Counted from the first letter of the stretch, positions 23,647-30,434 are shown. The stretch is 64,000 nt of DNA from an archaeon (GCA_020053355.1 JAGVNI010000006.1:34451-98450), one strand, 5' to 3'. Notes: generated from the sequence alone by a model not told the origin. Made by a program: numbers and translations.

Positions 23647-24057
23647 ATGAAGTCAGTTACCATAGTGTCAGAGGACAGGGTAGGCCTTTTGGCCGATATA
23701 TCCTACATACTCGGCAAGTCCAACGTCAATATAGACGGGTTGTCCGTGGATGTCCTAGGAGGGAAGGCAGTGATAGCTCTGGAGGTCAAGGACCCCAGGA
23801 AGGCGCAGGACATACTGTCAAGGAACGGTTTTTCCACAGCGCATCCTGAAGCCATAGTCATCAAGGTCTCGAACGATTCGATGGAGAAGATAACCGAGAT
23901 GCTCGAGACCGAGAAGATAAGCGTGACGGAGCTGTCCATGCTGTCATCGGACAGGGTGGACGGGATATTCGCGCTGAATGTCGACAAGCCGCGCAAGGCG
24001 CACAAGATGCTTACGCCCTTCATTCTCGGGCGCTCGCCTGGCCACGACCTCTATTGA
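23647..24057 (+). CDS. tandem ACT-domain protein
   Basis: 136 residues with two ACT domains. The first begins 'SVTIVSEDRVGLLADISYIL' (residues about 3-70); the second is near 75-130 ('SMEKITEMLETEKISVTEL'). ACT domains bind amino acids and control metabolic enzymes. No catalytic part is present. GTG codons at 23638 and 23641 are alternative starts. Its place beside ACT-less serA suggests it could be that enzyme's separate regulatory subunit; it may instead act alone as an amino-acid sensor. Confidence 0.8.
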   Translation: MKSVTIVSEDRVGLLADISYILGKSNVNIDGLSVDVLGGKAVIALEVKDPRKAQDILSRNGFSTAHPEAIVIKVSNDSMEKITEMLETEKISVTELSMLSSDRVDGIFALNVDKPRKAHKMLTPFILGRSPGHDLY

Positions 24058-24096: not shown

Positions 24097-24396
24097 TCAT
24101 TTCCCTTCAGGCTTAGCTCCAGCTACCGCCCCCGGAGCCAAAATATCGTATGCCCTGGTCAGGATGTCTGATACTGGCGTGGAAATCCCATCCCCCAGCA
24201 TATCCAGACGTTCGAATGAGCCTCGGGATTCCTTGTATCCCTCAGTCGCCGTTTCCGTGGAAATCCCGAAAAAACGTAGATGATTCCGGGCATCATCCGC
24301 CGGCTTCCTTTTCCTCGGCGAGAACGGCCTTCCTGCCTTCAGCGCATCGCGGATTTCAGTCCGCCTCCTCTCGTCGAACAGCGTCCGGAGCATCAT
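24097..24396 (-). CDS. LFDE-x-RR family protein 6
   Basis: 99 residues; last gene of a six-gene minus-strand cassette. It begins 'MMLRTLFDERRRTEIRDALK' and continues into a basic 'RPFSPRKRKP', the shared N-terminal module (about 31 residues). The remaining 68 residues are unlike the other members, helical ('TPVSDILTRAYDILAPGA') and end in a Gly/Ala/Lys tail. ATGA overlap with member 5. Convergent with the double-ACT gene. No signal peptide or membrane segment; function unknown. Confidence 0.78.
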   Translation of the reverse strand: MMLRTLFDERRRTEIRDALKAGRPFSPRKRKPADDARNHLRFFGISTETATEGYKESRGSFERLDMLGDGISTPVSDILTRAYDILAPGAVAGAKPEGK

Positions 24397-24758
24397 CCCC
24401 TGCCACCCCGGTTGTTCCTTGGAATGAATAAATCGTCGCCAACACCGGCAATCCCAGGAGGCTTGGAAGATATCGCGATATCGTCATATGAAACCGGGCG
24501 GCCTTTCGGGTAATCACCATACAGGAATTTCACCAAATCCTCGAATGTCGCAGATTCTACCGGCTTTCCCATCGCTTTTTGGAACGCCTCCTTGCCGTCT
24601 TCGCCTATTGTTGAAATCAAGCCCTGGATCGGATTCCCAGGCGCAGAGGGCTCCAGGGACGGGACCCTGCGCCTGAATGCGATCGGATTCCCGGACCTGA
24701 TGGCGTGGCGTATATCGTCCCGCCTCTTCTCATCGAAAAGCGCGCGCAGGATGCCCAT
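24393..24758 (-). CDS. LFDE-x-RR family protein 5
   Basis: 121 residues from Met at 24758; the track ORF adds 66 residues that belong antisense to member 4. It starts 'MGILRALFDEKRRDDIRHAI' and has 'PIAFRRRVP', the shared module. The C-terminal part is unique: 'GEDGKEAFQKAMGKPVESAT', then a Tyr/Pro/Gly-rich region ending 'NNRGGRG'. One base separates it from the stop of member 4. Function unknown. Confidence 0.78.
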   Translation of the reverse strand: MGILRALFDEKRRDDIRHAIRSGNPIAFRRRVPSLEPSAPGNPIQGLISTIGEDGKEAFQKAMGKPVESATFEDLVKFLYGDYPKGRPVSYDDIAISSKPPGIAGVGDDLFIPRNNRGGRG

Positions 24759-24759
24759 A

Positions 24760-25119
24760 CTAATCACTCCCTTCCCTGCCTTCAACACTAATCGTGCAGA
24801 TATTCCCGGTAGATATTTTCGATGGCGTAATCGTGATTTTCTTGCCGTCCGGCAGAGTGATTCTGCTCTCCTTTTCCATGGGGTATCCTCCGCGCACGAC
24901 GCTTTCCCCTCCCTGTGTGATGTCGATGATGGCGCACCCGTCCGGCCGAATCCCATCGAACCTGAAATTCAATCCGCCTGAGTGCATCGGGCCGTTGTTC
25001 TCCCCCATAATCATCTCTGCCCGGGGATTCTTTCTCCTGAATGGGAGCGGCTCGCCCTTCTCTATTGCATGGCGTAAATCCCGCCTCCTTCCCTCATCAA
25101 AAAGCGTCTGTAGTGCCAA
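24760..25119 (-). CDS. LFDE-x-RR family protein 4, beta-domain subtype
   Basis: 119 residues, starting at TTG 25119. The shared module 'LQTLFDEGRRRDLRHAIEKG' and 'PLPFRRKNP' is followed by a beta-rich domain ('GLNFRFDGIRPDGCAIIDI', 'RITLPDGKKITITP') related in pattern to the C-terminal domains of members 2 and 3. No membrane segment or signal peptide. The tight 1-base spacing on both sides shows cassette organisation. Confidence 0.78.
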   Translation of the reverse strand: MALQTLFDEGRRRDLRHAIEKGEPLPFRRKNPRAEMIMGENNGPMHSGGLNFRFDGIRPDGCAIIDITQGGESVVRGGYPMEKESRITLPDGKKITITPSKISTGNICTISVEGREGSD

Positions 25120-25120
25120 A

Positions 25121-25534
25121 TCAATCCCTCGATTCCTGCCTGACCGTGACGGTCACGACATCCTGCCCCGACACGTCGCGGGCCTCTTTCGCTTCCAAAG
25201 TGAAATATGCGGGGCTGGTCGCATCCGGATTGAAGTCTTTCATTTCTTTTCGCCCGATTTTCACATGCACCTTTCTCGCCTTGCCATCATTCCCGTTCCC
25301 CTTTTCGACCATGACAATCGCGTTTTTTCCATCTACGCCAATATACCTGAAACCGAACCCCCCGATTTTAACCTGCAGCCCAAGCGTAAGTTGGTCGCGC
25401 CTGAGCGCCCGGCGTTCATCCATCGAATCAGGGGCCGGCTTCCTGTGCTTAATTAGCGCGATGACATCCCCTTTTTTGAGGGCTTCCCGTACCCTATCCC
25501 TCCTGTTTTTATCGAAAAGCGCTTGGACTGCCAT
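25121..25534 (-). CDS. LFDE-x-RR family protein 3, beta-domain subtype
   Basis: 137 residues. N-terminal 'MAVQALFDKNRRDRVREALK' is the most diverged copy of the shared module (Val-Ile-Ala replaces the Pro-x-x-Phe part). The rest is a predicted beta sandwich: 'LQVKIGGFGFRYIGVDGKNA', 'RKVHVKIGRKEM', 'DVVTVTV'. The ATG follows the stop of member 2 directly (TAA-ATG). Function unknown; the domain pattern recalls small beta domains of archaeal surface proteins, but no signal peptide is present. Confidence 0.78.
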   Translation of the reverse strand: MAVQALFDKNRRDRVREALKKGDVIALIKHRKPAPDSMDERRALRRDQLTLGLQVKIGGFGFRYIGVDGKNAIVMVEKGNGNDGKARKVHVKIGRKEMKDFNPDATSPAYFTLEAKEARDVSGQDVVTVTVRQESRD

Positions 25535-25948
25535 TTAATCGCTCTCCGCGTACATCGATTCCACCACGATGGCGGCCTGCATCTGGGATTTTTCGCAAAC
25601 CTGCGGCGCAATCCTCACCCTCGTCCCGTCCGCCGGATAATCGATTACCGTTTCCCTGCCAATCGGCAGCGTTTTCGTCTCTGTCAGGCCATCCCCGCAC
25701 TTGATGCCCATTGCAATGTTGTTTCCTGCCACAGGCCCGTTGTATATGAAATAAAATCCGCCTATCTTGTAGCTTTCACCGATGGAAAGCCTGCCATCGT
25801 ATGCGCCCTTGGCGGCTTGGGAAGAACTCAACTCCGGTTCCGTGCTGTCTATTTTCGGCTCCCTGCTCCGGAAAACGATGGGCTTGCCGCTATGAACGGC
25901 TCCCCGGATTTCCTGCCTCCTTGTCTCATCGAACAGTGCGCGAATCAT
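25535..25948 (-). CDS. LFDE-x-RR family protein 2, beta-domain subtype
   Basis: 137 residues. 'MIRALFDETRRQEIRGAVHS' and 'PIVFRSREP' form the shared module. A linker leads to a beta-rich domain: 'LSIGESYKIGGFYFIYNGP', 'NNIAMGIKCGDG', 'LPIGRETVIDYPADGTRVRI'. It aligns by eye with member 3 over 'KIGGF-x-F-x-Y'. ATGA overlap with member 1. Two Cys are present. Function unknown. Confidence 0.78.
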   Translation of the reverse strand: MIRALFDETRRQEIRGAVHSGKPIVFRSREPKIDSTEPELSSSQAAKGAYDGRLSIGESYKIGGFYFIYNGPVAGNNIAMGIKCGDGLTETKTLPIGRETVIDYPADGTRVRIAPQVCEKSQMQAAIVVESMYAESD

Positions 25949-26409
25949 GGGCCCACCTTGCCTTTGGTTCCGAGCGTTGCGCGAATGGCGTCTTCTGCTT
26001 GCACCCGTTCTAGAAGTTGAAATATTAGCGCATATAGCTCTAATTGGGCGAGCATCATCTCCTCAGCCGGGGTGTATGTTACACTGATGCCATGCTTCGC
26101 ATCAAAGAATTTATACCCGACAGCGACTTCCAGATGCTCGATTTCTTCGCTTCCATGCTCTGCGGCAATCTCTCCCATTTTTTTCTCGTTATATTCCGTT
26201 GCACGGTCAAGCCGGTCCTTTGTTGCATCCCCCGATTCACGGATGCTTCGTATGAACGCGCGAATCTCGCAAGCGGCAGCGTTTTCGTTCCGGGCAGGTT
26301 CTGACAACCCCGGATTTTTCATGCGCTGGAATGGCAGGGGCTCGCCCTTCTCTAACGCCTTCTGGATATCGGTTCTCCTGCCTTTGTCGAATAGTGTCTT
26401 GAGTGTCAT
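25945..26409 (-). CDS. LFDE-x-RR family protein 1, helical subtype
   Basis: 154 residues from ATG 26409 (GTG 26412 is one codon earlier). First gene of the cassette, directly after its promoter. Shared module: 'MTLKTLFDKGRRTDIQKALE' and 'PLPFQRMKNP'. The C-terminal part is long and helical, possibly coiled coil ('RAFIRSIRESGDATKDRLDR', 'EEMMLAQLELYALIFQLLER'). It overlaps member 2 by ATGA. Function unknown. Confidence 0.78.
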   Translation of the reverse strand: MTLKTLFDKGRRTDIQKALEKGEPLPFQRMKNPGLSEPARNENAAACEIRAFIRSIRESGDATKDRLDRATEYNEKKMGEIAAEHGSEEIEHLEVAVGYKFFDAKHGISVTYTPAEEMMLAQLELYALIFQLLERVQAEDAIRATLGTKGKVGP

Positions 26410-26445
26410 CACTGGCCTCTGGTGGATAATCTGTGCACCAAAGGC

Positions 26446-26506: not shown

Positions 26507-27607
26507 TTAAGTGGTGATTCTGTCCACCATCTTCTTCTTTTCGGCGTCCTTGACTTCCATGGCGATGCGCCTGCCGAAGGAAACGCTTTCGCGGAAAAGG
26601 TAGCCTGAATACGGCGTGAAGCGGGTTCCTGGGGAGCCGGGCATCCTAAGCGAGATGTCGAAGCACGTGAACTTCTCCCCGTTATCCTCGATGAACGCGC
26701 CCTGGAGGGCGAATGGGCCGATGATGCCGTCCTTGTACTCCTTTTGCACTGCGCGGACGAACTTCTCGCCGATTTCAAAGCACTGGTCAAGGAGCGATTC
26801 GCGCATTGTGCAGGCGATATGCCCGACTTCTATGGTCGAAGGCTGCTGCATCTTCAGGAGTTCCAGTTGCACATCCGCAGGCATCCGGAGATAGCCGTCG
26901 ATATTCGTCTGCCTCCTCGTATCGAGCCCCAGAAGCTCCAGTTCCTCATGGACAGGAGAATAGAAAAAGTTCAGGTTGAAGTGCGAGCCCACGATATATT
27001 CCTCGACTGTGGCTTTCGAGAGCTGCTCCTCAGTAGTCTTTCCGCTTTTCACAAGGGCTTCCGAGCGCTCTTTGTATTCCTCATAGCTCCGTGCCAGGAA
27101 GAACGCCCGTTCATACGTCCTTTTCGCCTCGCTCACTTTCACGATGCAGAGCCTGTCGATGTCTTTCGGGGACTTGAACTTCTTAGGTGTGCGCATCCCG
27201 GCCTTCTCCATAAGGTAATACTGGTTCTTCGGCGCATCGCGCTCCTCGGCTCGGAGCAGGTACTTGTTCCCAAAGACCGGAATCGTGAACTGCTTCTCGA
27301 TTGCCTCGTAGCCCACATACACGGCGAACGAGCGGTTCGGGACGAAGATGGCGTTGCGCTTGTTGAGGAAATCGATGTTCTGAGGCAGGACCATCTCGCT
27401 GAACTTGTTGACAAGAAGAAGCTCGTCCACCACGCCGATTTCTTTGGTTACGCCTCCGGTCTCCCGTTTCCGGGTCTTGTACGGCCCCAGATACGTCTTC
27501 TCCCTGCCCCTCTGCGCAACTACAAGAGTATTGAAGCCCTCCTGCTTCGCGCCTTCGCTGACATCCAAAGCCGAGTGGCTACCTAATGTAGAAATAGTGT
27601 GCTTCAT
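26507..27607 (-). CDS. purP: formate-dependent AICAR formyltransferase (FAICAR synthetase)
   Basis: 366 residues, matching archaeal PurP, an ATP-grasp enzyme that formylates AICAR with formate and ATP instead of folate. Family traits are 'STLGSHSALDVSEGAKQEGF' at the N-terminus and 'GPFALQGAF', 'FDISLRMPGSPG' and 'ARIAMEV'-like blocks near the C-terminus. An 'aatattaacc' box lies about 25 bases upstream. With purQ it shows de novo purine synthesis. A loop (about residues 44-52, 'KTRKRETGG') is encoded by a 'cccggaaacggg' motif shared with other genes. Confidence 0.95.
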   Translation of the reverse strand: MKHTISTLGSHSALDVSEGAKQEGFNTLVVAQRGREKTYLGPYKTRKRETGGVTKEIGVVDELLLVNKFSEMVLPQNIDFLNKRNAIFVPNRSFAVYVGYEAIEKQFTIPVFGNKYLLRAEERDAPKNQYYLMEKAGMRTPKKFKSPKDIDRLCIVKVSEAKRTYERAFFLARSYEEYKERSEALVKSGKTTEEQLSKATVEEYIVGSHFNLNFFYSPVHEELELLGLDTRRQTNIDGYLRMPADVQLELLKMQQPSTIEVGHIACTMRESLLDQCFEIGEKFVRAVQKEYKDGIIGPFALQGAFIEDNGEKFTCFDISLRMPGSPGTRFTPYSGYLFRESVSFGRRIAMEVKDAEKKKMVDRITT

Positions 27608-27629: not shown

Positions 27630-30434
27630 TTAATATTCCCGTTTCTTCGGCTTCCAATCCGGGTCGCAGTCGTACGGGGTGGAAAGGAGGCTATCGAGCT
27701 GTTTCACAGTCACCCTGTAGTCCTCCCTGTATTCATCAATATAAGTGTTGCTGAAAAAATCGCTCTGGCCTGCAGCCTGCCTCCAGCCGCCCATCCATGG
27801 CGAACCATCCGCCCATTCCGAGAGGCCTTTTTCATAAGCGGTTCTGGCCTTGCAGTCATTGTCTTTGGTGATGACTCCTCGTTCGACCCACAGGAGGTTC
27901 GTCGGGTTGGCCGAGGCGCTTTTCATCCATACCTGCCAGCTGATTCTGGAAACGAACGGCGCTTCCCATCCGCTGTCCAATCCCCTTGCCGCAAGCTCCT
28001 TCCTCACCGCTCCGATGACCTGCGGGAAAGTGCCAATCAAGGTATATCGCAGCATGTTATACGCCATGTACGCCCTGCACACCTCCGCCCCGTTCCCGCG
28101 CATTCTCATATCCAATCCATTAGGCAGGTTGCGGACCAGCTGGTAGCGTTCGTTATATCCCATCCGGGCGAACTGTTCCCTTGCCTTCGGATTGGTTTTT
28201 TCGGTGAGCAGGAGCGGTATCAGCATATATGGGACCATCTTCACGGAATTGAAAAACATGTCCTCGCCCATTCCCCCCAAAGCGAGCATGTGAGTTCCGC
28301 CGGATTGCCAGCTCAGGTTTCGGGCGCGGAGCGCTTCGGCCCACTCGAAATGCTTTTTCCAGAATTCCGCTCCCCGCCTTTCGTCAAGGTACCAGAGCGA
28401 TAACGCCATCCTGCCGCCCTCTTCCGCGGTTTTCCTCCTCTCATCCGCCGAATCGGCCGCATGAGGCTTTCCGAGCTCCCTCAGCTTCAGCGCTAGATAG
28501 CCGTTCATTTCGGCAATCATGCCGTAAAGCTCGGCGCGGCCGTAATCAGTCAACTCTTTCCTGCCTGTCAATTTCGATAAGTCATCCACCGCTTCCGCGA
28601 CAAGCTGGACATTCTCCAATTCCTTGCTTTCGGGTTTTCCCCCCGCATCCCGGGTTTCCTCTACCTCAACCGGAATATCCTCTGCCTGCTTTTGCTCCGC
28701 CTTCTCCCTGGACCCGCAGTCAAGGATTGCCTTATCATCCGCATAGGCCCAGGAATACCCATCCCAATTGTATCCCCTGGAAGCGAAACGAAGCCCCCTG
28801 GCGGCTTTCTGGCTGATTATCCCAGAAACATTCCTGGTGCCGTATACTTCCTGCATGATGCGGTCCTCTGGATTCCAGTATTCGCCCGAAGCCTGCTGGG
28901 TCTGGATGCGCGGCAGGGCGGCTTGCGCCTTTAAGGGCATATGCGGTGGAAAACCCAGCCCTAAGATGACCAAGCTTAATGCAACCGAATCAGCAATCAT
29001 CTTGACGCTCAGGTCCACCTCCGACATGTCTATCGGGGTGTTCCGGTATCTGCCGATTCCCCTTATCCAGAACGGAAACATCATTCCCGGAAACCTGTCT
29101 TTGCACAGCGGATAATCAAACCCGCCCCCGTGAACCAAGTATCTTGCGATGAGGCTCTCCGCGGAGAACGCCTTGCCTCCCGGACATCTCTCCATGCCGG
29201 TGACCAGGTCCCTCATGGCAAAGCGGTTGAAAATGACCGGGGCGAGGTGTGTCGAATATGAGACGAGCATCACATCCTTCTCCCCTGCGTCATAGGCCAA
29301 TGCCGCCACGAGCTGAGAGAGCGCCTCGCAGTTGCCGCCTCCTGCAAACAGGGCATCGGAGAGCGTGCGCTTGCTGAGCCGGTATCGCATCCTGCCTAGC
29401 GCTTCCGGAACTGCTCTGGGAAGGCTTGACCCCCCGTCAATCCCGTTGCGGAGGGAATCAAGGAGGGCATCATAACTGGCCATCGCCTTTTCCGCATCAA
29501 ATGTGCGGCCATGCTCTTCTGCATCGATGCGGTTCGCGTTTATCAGGAATTCCCCCAGCCGGAACGTCCCCTTCTCAATATCGCGGAATGCCCTTTGCCG
29601 AAGCCCAATCCTTTCATGCGACATATCCCGTTTGTCAAGCGTATCTTCCTCGCGCTTTTTCGAGGGCACGGCCGCCGATGCGATTCCTAAAAGGCCAAGC
29701 GCCAGCGGGAAAGCCCATCTCGAATCGAATCCTTCCCTTGGCTCTATTCCATGCCTCGCTGCATACTCCCTGATGATGTCCTCGGGCTTCCCTTCATGCG
29801 CTTCCGGGGCCTTTTCACCGCTGACAAGGTCGAACTTATCGCCATCGCTCCTGTATATGGCCCTTGCATCCCCCGAATTGCCCCCCTGGTAGGACAGCCA
29901 TGCATCGTCGCTCCCGGCCGCGCCTGAATCATGGATGATGGAAAACAGCAGCAGCGCTTTCTGGCCCTGCGAGCCGACAGAATCAAGCAGCGCATCGCTC
30001 ATTCTCGCATCGCTTGAGCGCACGAGGGGCATCTTCAGCCCGGCGGTTGCAGCCGCTTTCAGGACGTCGTTCCCTTCCGCAAGCGACGAATCGAACTTAT
30101 CTATGTATCCCGAATATGCATCCAGGGTGCGGATGGGGTAAGCCGGTTTCCCCTCTGCCAGGGAATCGATGCATTCGGAACTTATGAGAAAACGGCCGGC
30201 TTCGAATTCCCCGTCGCTGCTTTTTTTCAGGGCGTCCGAAACCAGGGCCTCCCGGGCTGATTGGGCGCTTCTTTTTTCAGGCATCCTGGACAATGCCCCG
30301 TCTGCAGTTTTGCCGCTGCAGGTTTCAAGCAGCAGGCTCGCTTCATGCCCAAGGGGGTGCCTCAAAGCCGCCGCGCTGATTCCAGCGGCATGCAGCAATG
30401 CGGCTGATGCCAGGTACCTGTGAAGCCTGTTCAC
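27630..30434 (-). CDS. large exported protein with duplicated transglutaminase-like domain
   Basis: 934 residues, starting at GTG 30434, about 27 bases after 'tttaaaaaa'. Residues 1-23 look like a signal peptide or anchor; a second hydrophobic helix is near 243-259. Two related domains lie on either side: copy 1 about 74-225, copy 2 about 285-440. Copy 2 has 'GGGNCEALSQLVAALAYDAG' and a His in 'YSTHLAPVIF', like the Cys-His of transglutaminase/papain-like enzymes. Copy 1 aligns ('SDALLDSVGSQGQKALLLFS') but lacks the Cys. The C-terminal half is helical with many Trp and Tyr. Probably a surface hydrolase or cross-linker; function inferred. Confidence 0.7.
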   Translation of the reverse strand: MNRLHRYLASAALLHAAGISAAALRHPLGHEASLLLETCSGKTADGALSRMPEKRSAQSAREALVSDALKKSSDGEFEAGRFLISSECIDSLAEGKPAYPIRTLDAYSGYIDKFDSSLAEGNDVLKAAATAGLKMPLVRSSDARMSDALLDSVGSQGQKALLLFSIIHDSGAAGSDDAWLSYQGGNSGDARAIYRSDGDKFDLVSGEKAPEAHEGKPEDIIREYAARHGIEPREGFDSRWAFPLALGLLGIASAAVPSKKREEDTLDKRDMSHERIGLRQRAFRDIEKGTFRLGEFLINANRIDAEEHGRTFDAEKAMASYDALLDSLRNGIDGGSSLPRAVPEALGRMRYRLSKRTLSDALFAGGGNCEALSQLVAALAYDAGEKDVMLVSYSTHLAPVIFNRFAMRDLVTGMERCPGGKAFSAESLIARYLVHGGGFDYPLCKDRFPGMMFPFWIRGIGRYRNTPIDMSEVDLSVKMIADSVALSLVILGLGFPPHMPLKAQAALPRIQTQQASGEYWNPEDRIMQEVYGTRNVSGIISQKAARGLRFASRGYNWDGYSWAYADDKAILDCGSREKAEQKQAEDIPVEVEETRDAGGKPESKELENVQLVAEAVDDLSKLTGRKELTDYGRAELYGMIAEMNGYLALKLRELGKPHAADSADERRKTAEEGGRMALSLWYLDERRGAEFWKKHFEWAEALRARNLSWQSGGTHMLALGGMGEDMFFNSVKMVPYMLIPLLLTEKTNPKAREQFARMGYNERYQLVRNLPNGLDMRMRGNGAEVCRAYMAYNMLRYTLIGTFPQVIGAVRKELAARGLDSGWEAPFVSRISWQVWMKSASANPTNLLWVERGVITKDNDCKARTAYEKGLSEWADGSPWMGGWRQAAGQSDFFSNTYIDEYREDYRVTVKQLDSLLSTPYDCDPDWKPKKREY

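What the first reader, a model, noticed from the sequence alone, without database searches (positions are those of the whole stretch)
24097..26412. Six-gene cassette with a shared N-terminal 'LFDE-x-RR' module and divergent C-terminal parts
All six tandem minus-strand genes begin with the same ~30-residue module: about 4-6 residues, then LFD(E/K)-x-RR-x2-(I/V/L)-(R/Q)-x-A-(I/L/V)-x2-G-x-P-x2-F-(R/Q)-(R/x)-x-x-P. The remaining sequences differ: one long helical, three beta-rich, two unique. Starts and stops overlap or nearly touch, so the genes are co-translated. A constant N-terminus with variable C-termini is the layout of a targeting, docking or loading tag: effectors handed to a common partner, subunits assembled on one scaffold, or cargo of a delivery device. 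I know of no described family with this tag; archaeal origin and DPANN host association make an effector or interaction role possible.
Basis: seen in the sequence. Interest (0 to 1): 0.9.

Follow-up and report, generated by a model that had tools for sequence, protein, structure and literature searches.

The report
N-terminal tag of MoxR-vWA client proteins
Six neighbouring genes of a tiny archaeon share one short front-end tag on unrelated back ends; the same tag sits elsewhere in the genome on proteins encoded beside a MoxR ATPase and a vWA/protease-like partner, so it is probably the address label that hands variable sensor or effector proteins to that machine.

Summary
Six overlapping minus-strand genes (24097-26412) share a ~30-aa N-terminal module (mean pairwise score 71.9 against 18.7±1.1 shuffled) in front of mostly unrelated C-terminal parts. 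It is not a local oddity. This genome (Micrarchaeota) has 23 copies on five contigs, and one congener has 11. Most others are fused to ankyrin repeats, or to a domain with a hypervariable end. Eleven lie in an operon with a MoxR-type AAA+ ATPase and a vWA protein carrying HExGHWE. Among 301 Micrarchaeota genomes this module or its diverged 'LID' form occurs in four, all among the ten with that vWA protein. In one of them, and in five Pace-/Woese-/Nanoarchaeal MoxR-vWA loci, N-terminally tagged proteins are targets of diversity-generating retroelements: changes fall almost only on template adenines. Tags within a locus are near-identical in DNA on proteins that then diverge. Best reading: an N-terminal docking tag for clients of a DPANN MoxR-vWA machine, analogous to bacterial 'ternary conflict systems' but without their third component and without a tag copy on the core. 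The window cassette is a detached, lineage-specific batch of clients. Physical docking and an immune role are inferred, not shown. No family library knows the tag.

The parts
25945..26412 (-). g1, 154-155 aa: LFDKGRR tag plus helical C-terminal part
   Evidence: no Pfam family (EncFtn-like 0.092 is chance level)
25535..25948 (-). g2, 137 aa: tag plus beta-rich part related to g3 (C-part score 76)
25121..25534 (-). g3, 137 aa: tag plus beta-rich domain; AlphaFold2 pLDDT 70, tag helix 9-20; orthologue in G015 (37% identity)
   Evidence: no convincing fold match
24760..25119 (-). g4, 119 aa (TTG start): tag plus beta-rich part, related to G015 L061:8211-8549 (32%)
24393..24758 (-). g5, 121 aa: tag plus unique part; orthologue in G015 (50%)
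24097..24396 (-). g6, 99 aa: tag plus unique part; diverged counterpart in G015 (47%)
26314..26409 (-). tag of g1 (MTLKTLFDKGRRTDIQKALEKGEPLPFQRMKN)
25856..25948 (-). tag of g2
25436..25534 (-). tag of g3
25024..25119 (-). tag of g4
24660..24758 (-). tag of g5
24301..24396 (-). tag of g6
26507..27607 (-). upstream flank, DUF1246/DUF1297 (PurP-like) gene; marks the insertion site
   Evidence: adjacent to the ACT gene in congeners without the cassette
23647..24057 (+). downstream flank, ACT-domain-like gene, convergent
   Evidence: ACT assignment by eye, not by Pfam

Best explanation
The LFDExRR module is an N-terminal docking tag, a short helix at the very start of each protein. It marks a repertoire of variable client proteins (ankyrin-repeat, hypervariable DGR-target-like, beta-rich and helical parts) for one machine: a MoxR-type AAA+ ATPase working with a vWA protein that has a MIDAS site and a metallopeptidase-like HExGHWE motif. 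The window cassette is a detached batch of clients inserted between two housekeeping genes in the lineage of this species and its congener G015. By analogy with bacterial MoxR-vWA conflict systems, the clients would be sensors or effectors whose assembly, release or cleavage the machine controls. SHOWN: the shared tag and variable ends; purifying selection on the tag; the same tag inside the MoxR-vWA operon; co-occurrence across Micrarchaeota; tagged, DGR-diversified proteins in related DPANN MoxR-vWA loci; near-identity of tag DNA within loci. INFERRED: physical docking to vWA/MoxR, the effect of ATP hydrolysis or peptidase activity, and the role in self/non-self or host/virus sensing.
For: 23 copies of the module in this genome and 11 in G015, E down to 5e-16. 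Eleven are in one cluster with MoxR and vWA genes, with overlapping genes; the same arrangement occurs in G015. Within the genus (17 genomes) only these two have the close MoxR and vWA orthologues, 75-77% identical. vWA protein in 10 of 301 Micrarchaeota genomes; LFD tag in 2 and LID tag in 2, all four inside the ten. The LID tag of G097 and G035 aligns gaplessly with LFD (probability 78%, P 2e-5) and also heads ankyrin and hypervariable proteins in MoxR-vWA loci. The hypervariable domain families of the two genomes are related (P 6e-7). A LID-tagged protein is a DGR target: changes at 11/21 template adenines against 3/57 other bases. In five Pace-/Woese-/Nanoarchaeal MoxR-vWA loci most N-terminally tagged proteins are DGR targets too (e.g. 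A 26/37, other 2/73; A 16/21, other 0/50). Tags within a locus are 92-100% identical at DNA level over 75-90 nt, after which identity drops in several pairs. vWA: MIDAS residues and HExxH invariant in 14 sequences; the vWA region matches a neighbour protein (P 3e-16) that itself hits Pfam VWA_2 weakly (E 0.0016).
Against: The window cassette is not beside the MoxR-vWA genes; the link is same tag, same genome. The tag is not found on MoxR or vWA, so there is no homotypic partner. The LFD tag is known from only two related species, so co-occurrence is few independent events. Similarity of the LFD tag to the Pace/Woese tags is not significant (probability 7%, P 0.005). No RT or template repeat was found in this genome, which is 90% complete. 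The six C-terminal parts have no recognisable effector or sensor domain. Pfam does not recognise the vWA protein directly. A second MoxR-vWA locus in G000 itself (C13) shows no tag family.
Confidence: 0.62

Rival explanations
1. The module is a self-association or scaffold domain: tagged proteins bind one another through it and form a mixed assembly, independently of MoxR-vWA or with it only as an assembly chaperone.
For: A constant small helical module on many proteins in tandem operons is what bacterial effector-associated domains look like, and these are thought to act homotypically (PMC7159879). The MoxR and vWA proteins carry no copy, which a homotypic scaffold among clients would not need.
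Against: About 30 residues with one predicted helix is small for a homotypic domain. Each DPANN locus has its own tag version kept near-uniform in DNA, which suggests matching to a locus-specific partner. Tag genomes are a subset of vWA genomes.
Confidence: 0.2
2. The module is a leader or recognition sequence for the HExGHWE metallopeptidase-like part of the vWA protein: tagged proteins are made inactive and released by N-terminal cleavage.
For: HExxH is invariant in 14 aligned vWA proteins. The tag is strictly N-terminal and usually followed by a Pro-rich variable linker. Protease-controlled release is proposed for bacterial MoxR-vWA systems (PMC7159879, PMC10907252).
Against: No conserved cleavage site follows the tag; homology of the HExxH region to a known peptidase was not established. 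Position and variable linker fit docking equally well.
Confidence: 0.1
3. The module is a targeting or secretion signal used in interaction with the archaeal host of this DPANN cell; the proteins are exported effectors.
For: DPANN archaea are often ectosymbionts; ankyrin proteins can be effectors in other symbionts (general knowledge). The window carries type II/IV-like secretion ATPase and membrane genes.
Against: No hydrophobic segment and no unusual amphipathicity. Tagged genes sit with an intracellular-type MoxR-vWA pair. One tagged protein appears to have its own membrane helices (L110).
Confidence: 0.06
4. The module is the degenerate N-terminal cap of an ancestral ankyrin protein that was duplicated, with C-terminal replacement and no separate function.
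For: Most tagged proteins outside the window have ankyrin or ankyrin-like repeats, and 'xxIRxAIxxG' superficially resembles ankyrin helix 1.
Against: It is kept on proteins with no ankyrin repeat, separated from ankyrin repeats by long linkers, under purifying selection, and shared at DNA level between unrelated C-terminal parts.
Confidence: 0.02

Closest known systems
MoxR-vWA ternary conflict systems of multicellular bacteria (Kaur et al. 2020, PMC7159879)
   Same: MoxR-type AAA+ plus vWA with MIDAS; variable client/effector repertoire; coupling to DGRs; small constant module linking variable proteins to the core
   Different: Found in DPANN archaea; no VMAP, iSTAND, FtsH or beta-propeller third component recognised; vWA carries an N-terminal HExGHWE region; variable parts are separate tagged proteins, not fused to vWA; tag absent from the core
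Effector-associated domains (EADs, bDLDs)
   Same: Small non-enzymatic module repeated on several proteins of one operon and elsewhere in the genome, correlated with the core system
   Different: EADs have one copy on a core component and are thought to act homotypically; here no core copy was found; about 30 aa only
DPANN diversity-generating retroelements (Paul et al. 2015, PMC4372165; discussed in Dore et al. 2024, PMC10907252)
   Same: RT, template repeat and adenine-specific changes in C-terminal variable regions of orphan target proteins
   Different: Targets here lie in MoxR-vWA operons and share locus-specific N-terminal tags. Dore et al. [quoted passage not shown] the clade of the RTs seen here was not determined
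RavA-ViaA and other MoxR-vWA chaperone pairs
   Same: ATPase plus vWA co-chaperone capturing a peptide of a client
   Different: Client repertoire is large and variable; profile similarity of the archaeal vWA to E. coli ViaA is weak (probability 5%, P 0.008)

Membership tests
MoxR-vWA ternary conflict system | MoxR-clade AAA+ ATPase | tested here: met
   AAA_5 over cut-off in L020 and L135, the latter with bpMoxR at 2.8e-4, below its cut-off; linked to the vWA gene
MoxR-vWA ternary conflict system | vWA co-chaperone with MIDAS residues | tested here: met
   Asp, Ser, Thr and Asp of the MIDAS pattern invariant in 14 sequences; profile match P 3e-16 to a protein that hits VWA_2 weakly; no direct Pfam hit
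MoxR-vWA ternary conflict system | Third component VMAP, iSTAND, FtsH or beta-propeller protein | tested here: not met
   No such Pfam hit among the operon proteins scanned; the system is therefore not filed as a member
MoxR-vWA ternary conflict system | Anti-invader activity | not testable with these tools
   Needs experiment; predicted only for the bacterial systems too
Effector-associated domain (EAD) | One copy fused to a core component | tested here: not met
   Tag profile finds no copy in MoxR or vWA of G000 or G015
Effector-associated domain (EAD) | Further copies on variable proteins, in the operon or elsewhere, correlated with the core system | tested here: met
Effector-associated domain (EAD) | Small, non-enzymatic, usually alpha-helical domain | tested here: inconclusive
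   Helix 9-20 predicted in the g3 model, but pLDDT in the tag is about 47-62
DGR target proteins | Adenine-specific differences between template and variable region, RT nearby | tested here: met
   Met for tagged proteins of G097 and of L128, L129, L130, L132, L134; PF00078 over cut-off in L129 and L145
DGR target proteins (this genome) | RT and template repeat in the window's own genome | tested here: not met
   No PF00078 match, no template found by DNA search; three tagged C15 proteins have a DGR-like hypervariable end; the six window proteins do not
Contractile injection system cargo / phage tail assembly | Structural genes (tube, sheath, baseplate) or viral context | tested here: inconclusive
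   Flanks of the C15 operon look like housekeeping genes by eye; no relative of the vWA protein in viral contigs; whole genome not searched for sheath genes

The most novel reading that the evidence does not exclude
DPANN archaea have their own MoxR-vWA-metallopeptidase machine that serves an open-ended, partly hypermutated repertoire of proteins. Each is addressed to the machine by a short N-terminal tag specific to the locus and kept uniform by gene conversion, so that new domains (such as the six in this window) become clients simply by acquiring the tag.
Probability: 0.42. Interest if true: 0.86.

Novelty: new variant of a known kind. Interest (0 to 1): 0.72.

Why it matters
[quoted passage not shown] Here such targets sit in MoxR-vWA operons and carry a shared N-terminal tag. 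If the tag is a docking address, the role of hypermutated proteins in these small, often symbiotic archaea becomes testable with one pull-down, and a simple rule for recruiting clients to an AAA+ machine (add a 30-residue N-terminal tag) would be established outside bacteria.

Tried and rejected
Pfam, NCBIfam, PADLOC and PHROGs gave no usable family; EncFtn-like for g1 (0.092) and phrog_19224 for g3 (0.0037) are too weak. A match of the tag to the C-terminus of A-type ATPase subunit E in G011 (E 0.007) was rejected as chance: one genome in about 100, wrong end of the protein. An HMM of the LFD tag alone does not reach the LID tags; profile-profile comparison does. AlphaFold2 of the hypervariable-domain family failed (pLDDT 36). 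Foldseek of g3 gave no match at or below E 0.001. Membrane targeting by an amphipathic helix is not supported. A viral origin of the vWA core is not supported; the same scan with the tag alignment could not run. No Rfam hit around the cassette. The Pace/Woese tags resemble the LFD tag in spacing (hydrophobic pair, D or G, then I/L at +7), but homology was not established. The hypervariable domain of Micrarchaeota and the DGR target of L129 could not be related by profile.

Full report
OBSERVATION. Six minus-strand ORFs between 24097 and 26412 overlap or abut and begin with the same ~30-residue module. The six modules score 71.9 on average pairwise, against 18.7±1.1 after shuffling. The C-terminal parts score 29.5 against 25.6±1.2, because g2, g3 and g4 are related to one another and the rest are not. 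N-termini of 56 other window ORFs score 15.7±4.8. Synonymous sites of the modules are near saturation (pS 0.73) while non-synonymous change is limited (pN 0.30), so the protein sequence is under selection and the copies are old.

GENOME-WIDE FAMILY. The window is part of contig C18 of a 1.59-Mb, 90% complete genome. A profile of the module finds 23 copies on five contigs: six in the window, eleven on C15, four on C3, one each on C2 and C13. Most of the others are followed by ankyrin or ankyrin-like repeats. Three C15 proteins carry a different domain whose last ~40 residues are hypervariable. On C15 the tagged genes form one overlapping run with a 533-aa AAA+ protein (Pfam AAA_5) and a 673-aa protein with IDSSGSM and HEIGHWE motifs.

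SECOND SPECIES AND EMPTY SITE. Of 98 relatives searched, only one congener, G015 (same contig and position as the named record Candidatus Micrarchaeota PMV_4.13), has the module: 11 copies, five in a cassette between the same two flanking genes and six in a MoxR-vWA cluster. Cassette orthologues are 32-50% identical, whereas the flanking PurP-like and SerA proteins are 95% and 83%, so the cassette evolves fast but keeps its frames and tags. In several congeners, for example G009 and G011, the PurP-like and ACT genes are adjacent with no cassette. The cassette is therefore a lineage-specific insertion.

THE LIKELY PARTNER. Within the genus only G000 and G015 have the close MoxR and vWA orthologues, 75-77% identical. 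In 301 Micrarchaeota genomes the vWA protein occurs in ten; the LFD tag in two and the LID tag in two others, all four among those ten. LFD alone is two of two, with few independent events. The LID tag was found by reading MoxR-vWA loci, but the search that followed covered all 301 genomes.

DIVERGED TAGS. In G097 and G035 ankyrin proteins at MoxR-vWA loci start with MxxxGxLIDxxKKxxVLxRIxxxKxP. Profile-profile comparison with the LFD tag aligns 25 columns without gaps (probability 78%, P 1.9e-5). G097 has at least 26 LID-tagged proteins, on ankyrin repeats, an apparent membrane protein, and a domain related to the C15 hypervariable one (P 6e-7). A second MoxR-vWA locus of G097 has at least a dozen genes sharing another module, DPIxxxxxxEGLFG, near the N-terminus, again with unrelated C-terminal parts.

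HYPERMUTATION. Beside one DPI-module protein of G097 lie a template repeat and a reverse transcriptase (PF00078). Template-to-variable differences fall on 13 of 23 adenines and 1 of 58 other bases; for a LID-tagged protein elsewhere in the genome, 11 of 21 and 3 of 57. Other LID-tagged members are more diverged from this template. So at least one LID-tagged protein is a DGR target. In this window's own genome no RT or template was found, and the six window proteins have no variable region of this kind.

OTHER DPANN. A scan of 11.3 million contigs with the vWA profile returned 15 loci, all archaeal and, where titled, DPANN: Micrarchaeota, Pacearchaeota, Woesearchaeota, Nanoarchaeia. In the Pace/Woese/Nano loci the order is typically MoxR, target protein, vWA, target protein, often followed by template and RT. 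The two or three target proteins of a locus usually share an N-terminal tag. In five loci (L128, L129, L130, L132, L134) the changes are strongly adenine-specific for nearly all targets, e.g. 26/37 against 2/73 and 16/21 against 0/50; L130:10400-11161 is an exception, and three further loci had no template where I looked. In L129 and L131 the DNA of the two tags is 93-98% identical over 60-75 nt and then drops; in L132 and L134 identity runs further. In G015 two cassette genes with unrelated C-terminal parts share 92% over 90 nt. This suggests that tags are homogenised or exchanged within a locus. Similarity of these tags to LFD is in spacing only (P 0.005).

CORE PROTEINS. In 14 vWA proteins H111, E112, H115 and the MIDAS residues D468, S470, T546, D570 are invariant. 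The C-terminal part matches (P 3e-16) a 264-aa neighbour in G097 that hits Pfam VWA_2 at 0.0016. Similarity to E. coli ViaA is weak. The peptidase-like reading of HExGHWE rests on the motif alone.

MECHANISM. In known MoxR-vWA pairs the vWA domain captures a client peptide and the ATPase remodels the client (PMC7159879). The simplest model is that the tag is that peptide, or a docking helix beside it. The conserved Asp of LFD/LID is a candidate MIDAS ligand (inference; Pace/Woese tags have Gly there). Clients with hypervariable or ankyrin parts would recognise something, and the machine would assemble, release or cut them. The window cassette would be additional clients of unknown activity. 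Confidence is 0.62 for docking to this machine and lower for an immune role.

COMPARISON. The closest known systems are the bacterial MoxR-vWA ternary conflict systems, their effector-associated domains and their DGR-diversified sensors (PMC7159879, PMC8195603, PMC10907252). Two defining features were tested and not met: a recognised third component, and a copy of the module on a core component. I therefore say that it works like such a system and do not file it as a member. Dore et al. [quoted passage not shown] the loci here are DPANN DGRs inside MoxR-vWA operons, although I did not place their RTs in a clade. Pfam misses the vWA protein, which may be why the link was overlooked. My literature check covered open-access papers only; Paul et al. 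2017 was not available.

LIMITS. These are metagenome-assembled genomes. The tag is short, so cross-phylum homology is unproven. No interaction, expression or phenotype is known. The cassette's own C-terminal parts remain unidentified.

Noticed in passing
L143:11126-14858 (G000 C15, ~161 kb): Five tandem paralogues of the hypervariable (DGR-target-like) domain without the LFD tag but with another shared N-terminus, M(A/T)LTQKxPGxERIRGPxLA; their ends are also hypervariable.
   Followed up: partly
L094:6253-19435 (G097 C26): At least a dozen genes around a second MoxR and vWA pair share a DPIxxxxxxEGLFGxxPGxVK module near the N-terminus, fused to membrane, ankyrin and helical parts.
   Followed up: partly
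L128-L135 (Pacearchaeota, Woesearchaeota, Nanoarchaeia): DGRs with adenine-specific variation (shown in five loci) embedded in MoxR-vWA(HExxH) operons; target proteins of one locus share a locus-specific N-terminal tag.
   Followed up: yes
L089:7178-7510: A 110-aa G097 protein carries the LID motif twice in tandem (LIDKKKKEKILKRIHNRETP and GARKKEEILKRIREGKAP), suggesting the motif is a repeatable unit.
   Followed up: no
window 27630-30434 (-): 934-aa protein without any Pfam family next to the PurP-like gene; conserved in G015 (78%), not found next to the PurP-like gene in the other congeners examined.
   Followed up: partly
L092:7240-11915 (G000 C13): A second, diverged MoxR / 355-aa / vWA operon in this genome (also in G009) without a tag family.
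   Followed up: partly
L088:8604-12329 (G035): A single 1241-aa ankyrin protein with an LID tag lies between MoxR and vWA, replacing the many small ankyrin genes of other loci.
   Followed up: no
L074:1969-2976 and L085 (G045): MoxR and vWA each adjoin a gene starting with the same ~55-residue N-terminus (KDKKRNIRRITLDTKFCGIPLKDWPDPKP) followed by repeats, another candidate tag.
   Followed up: no
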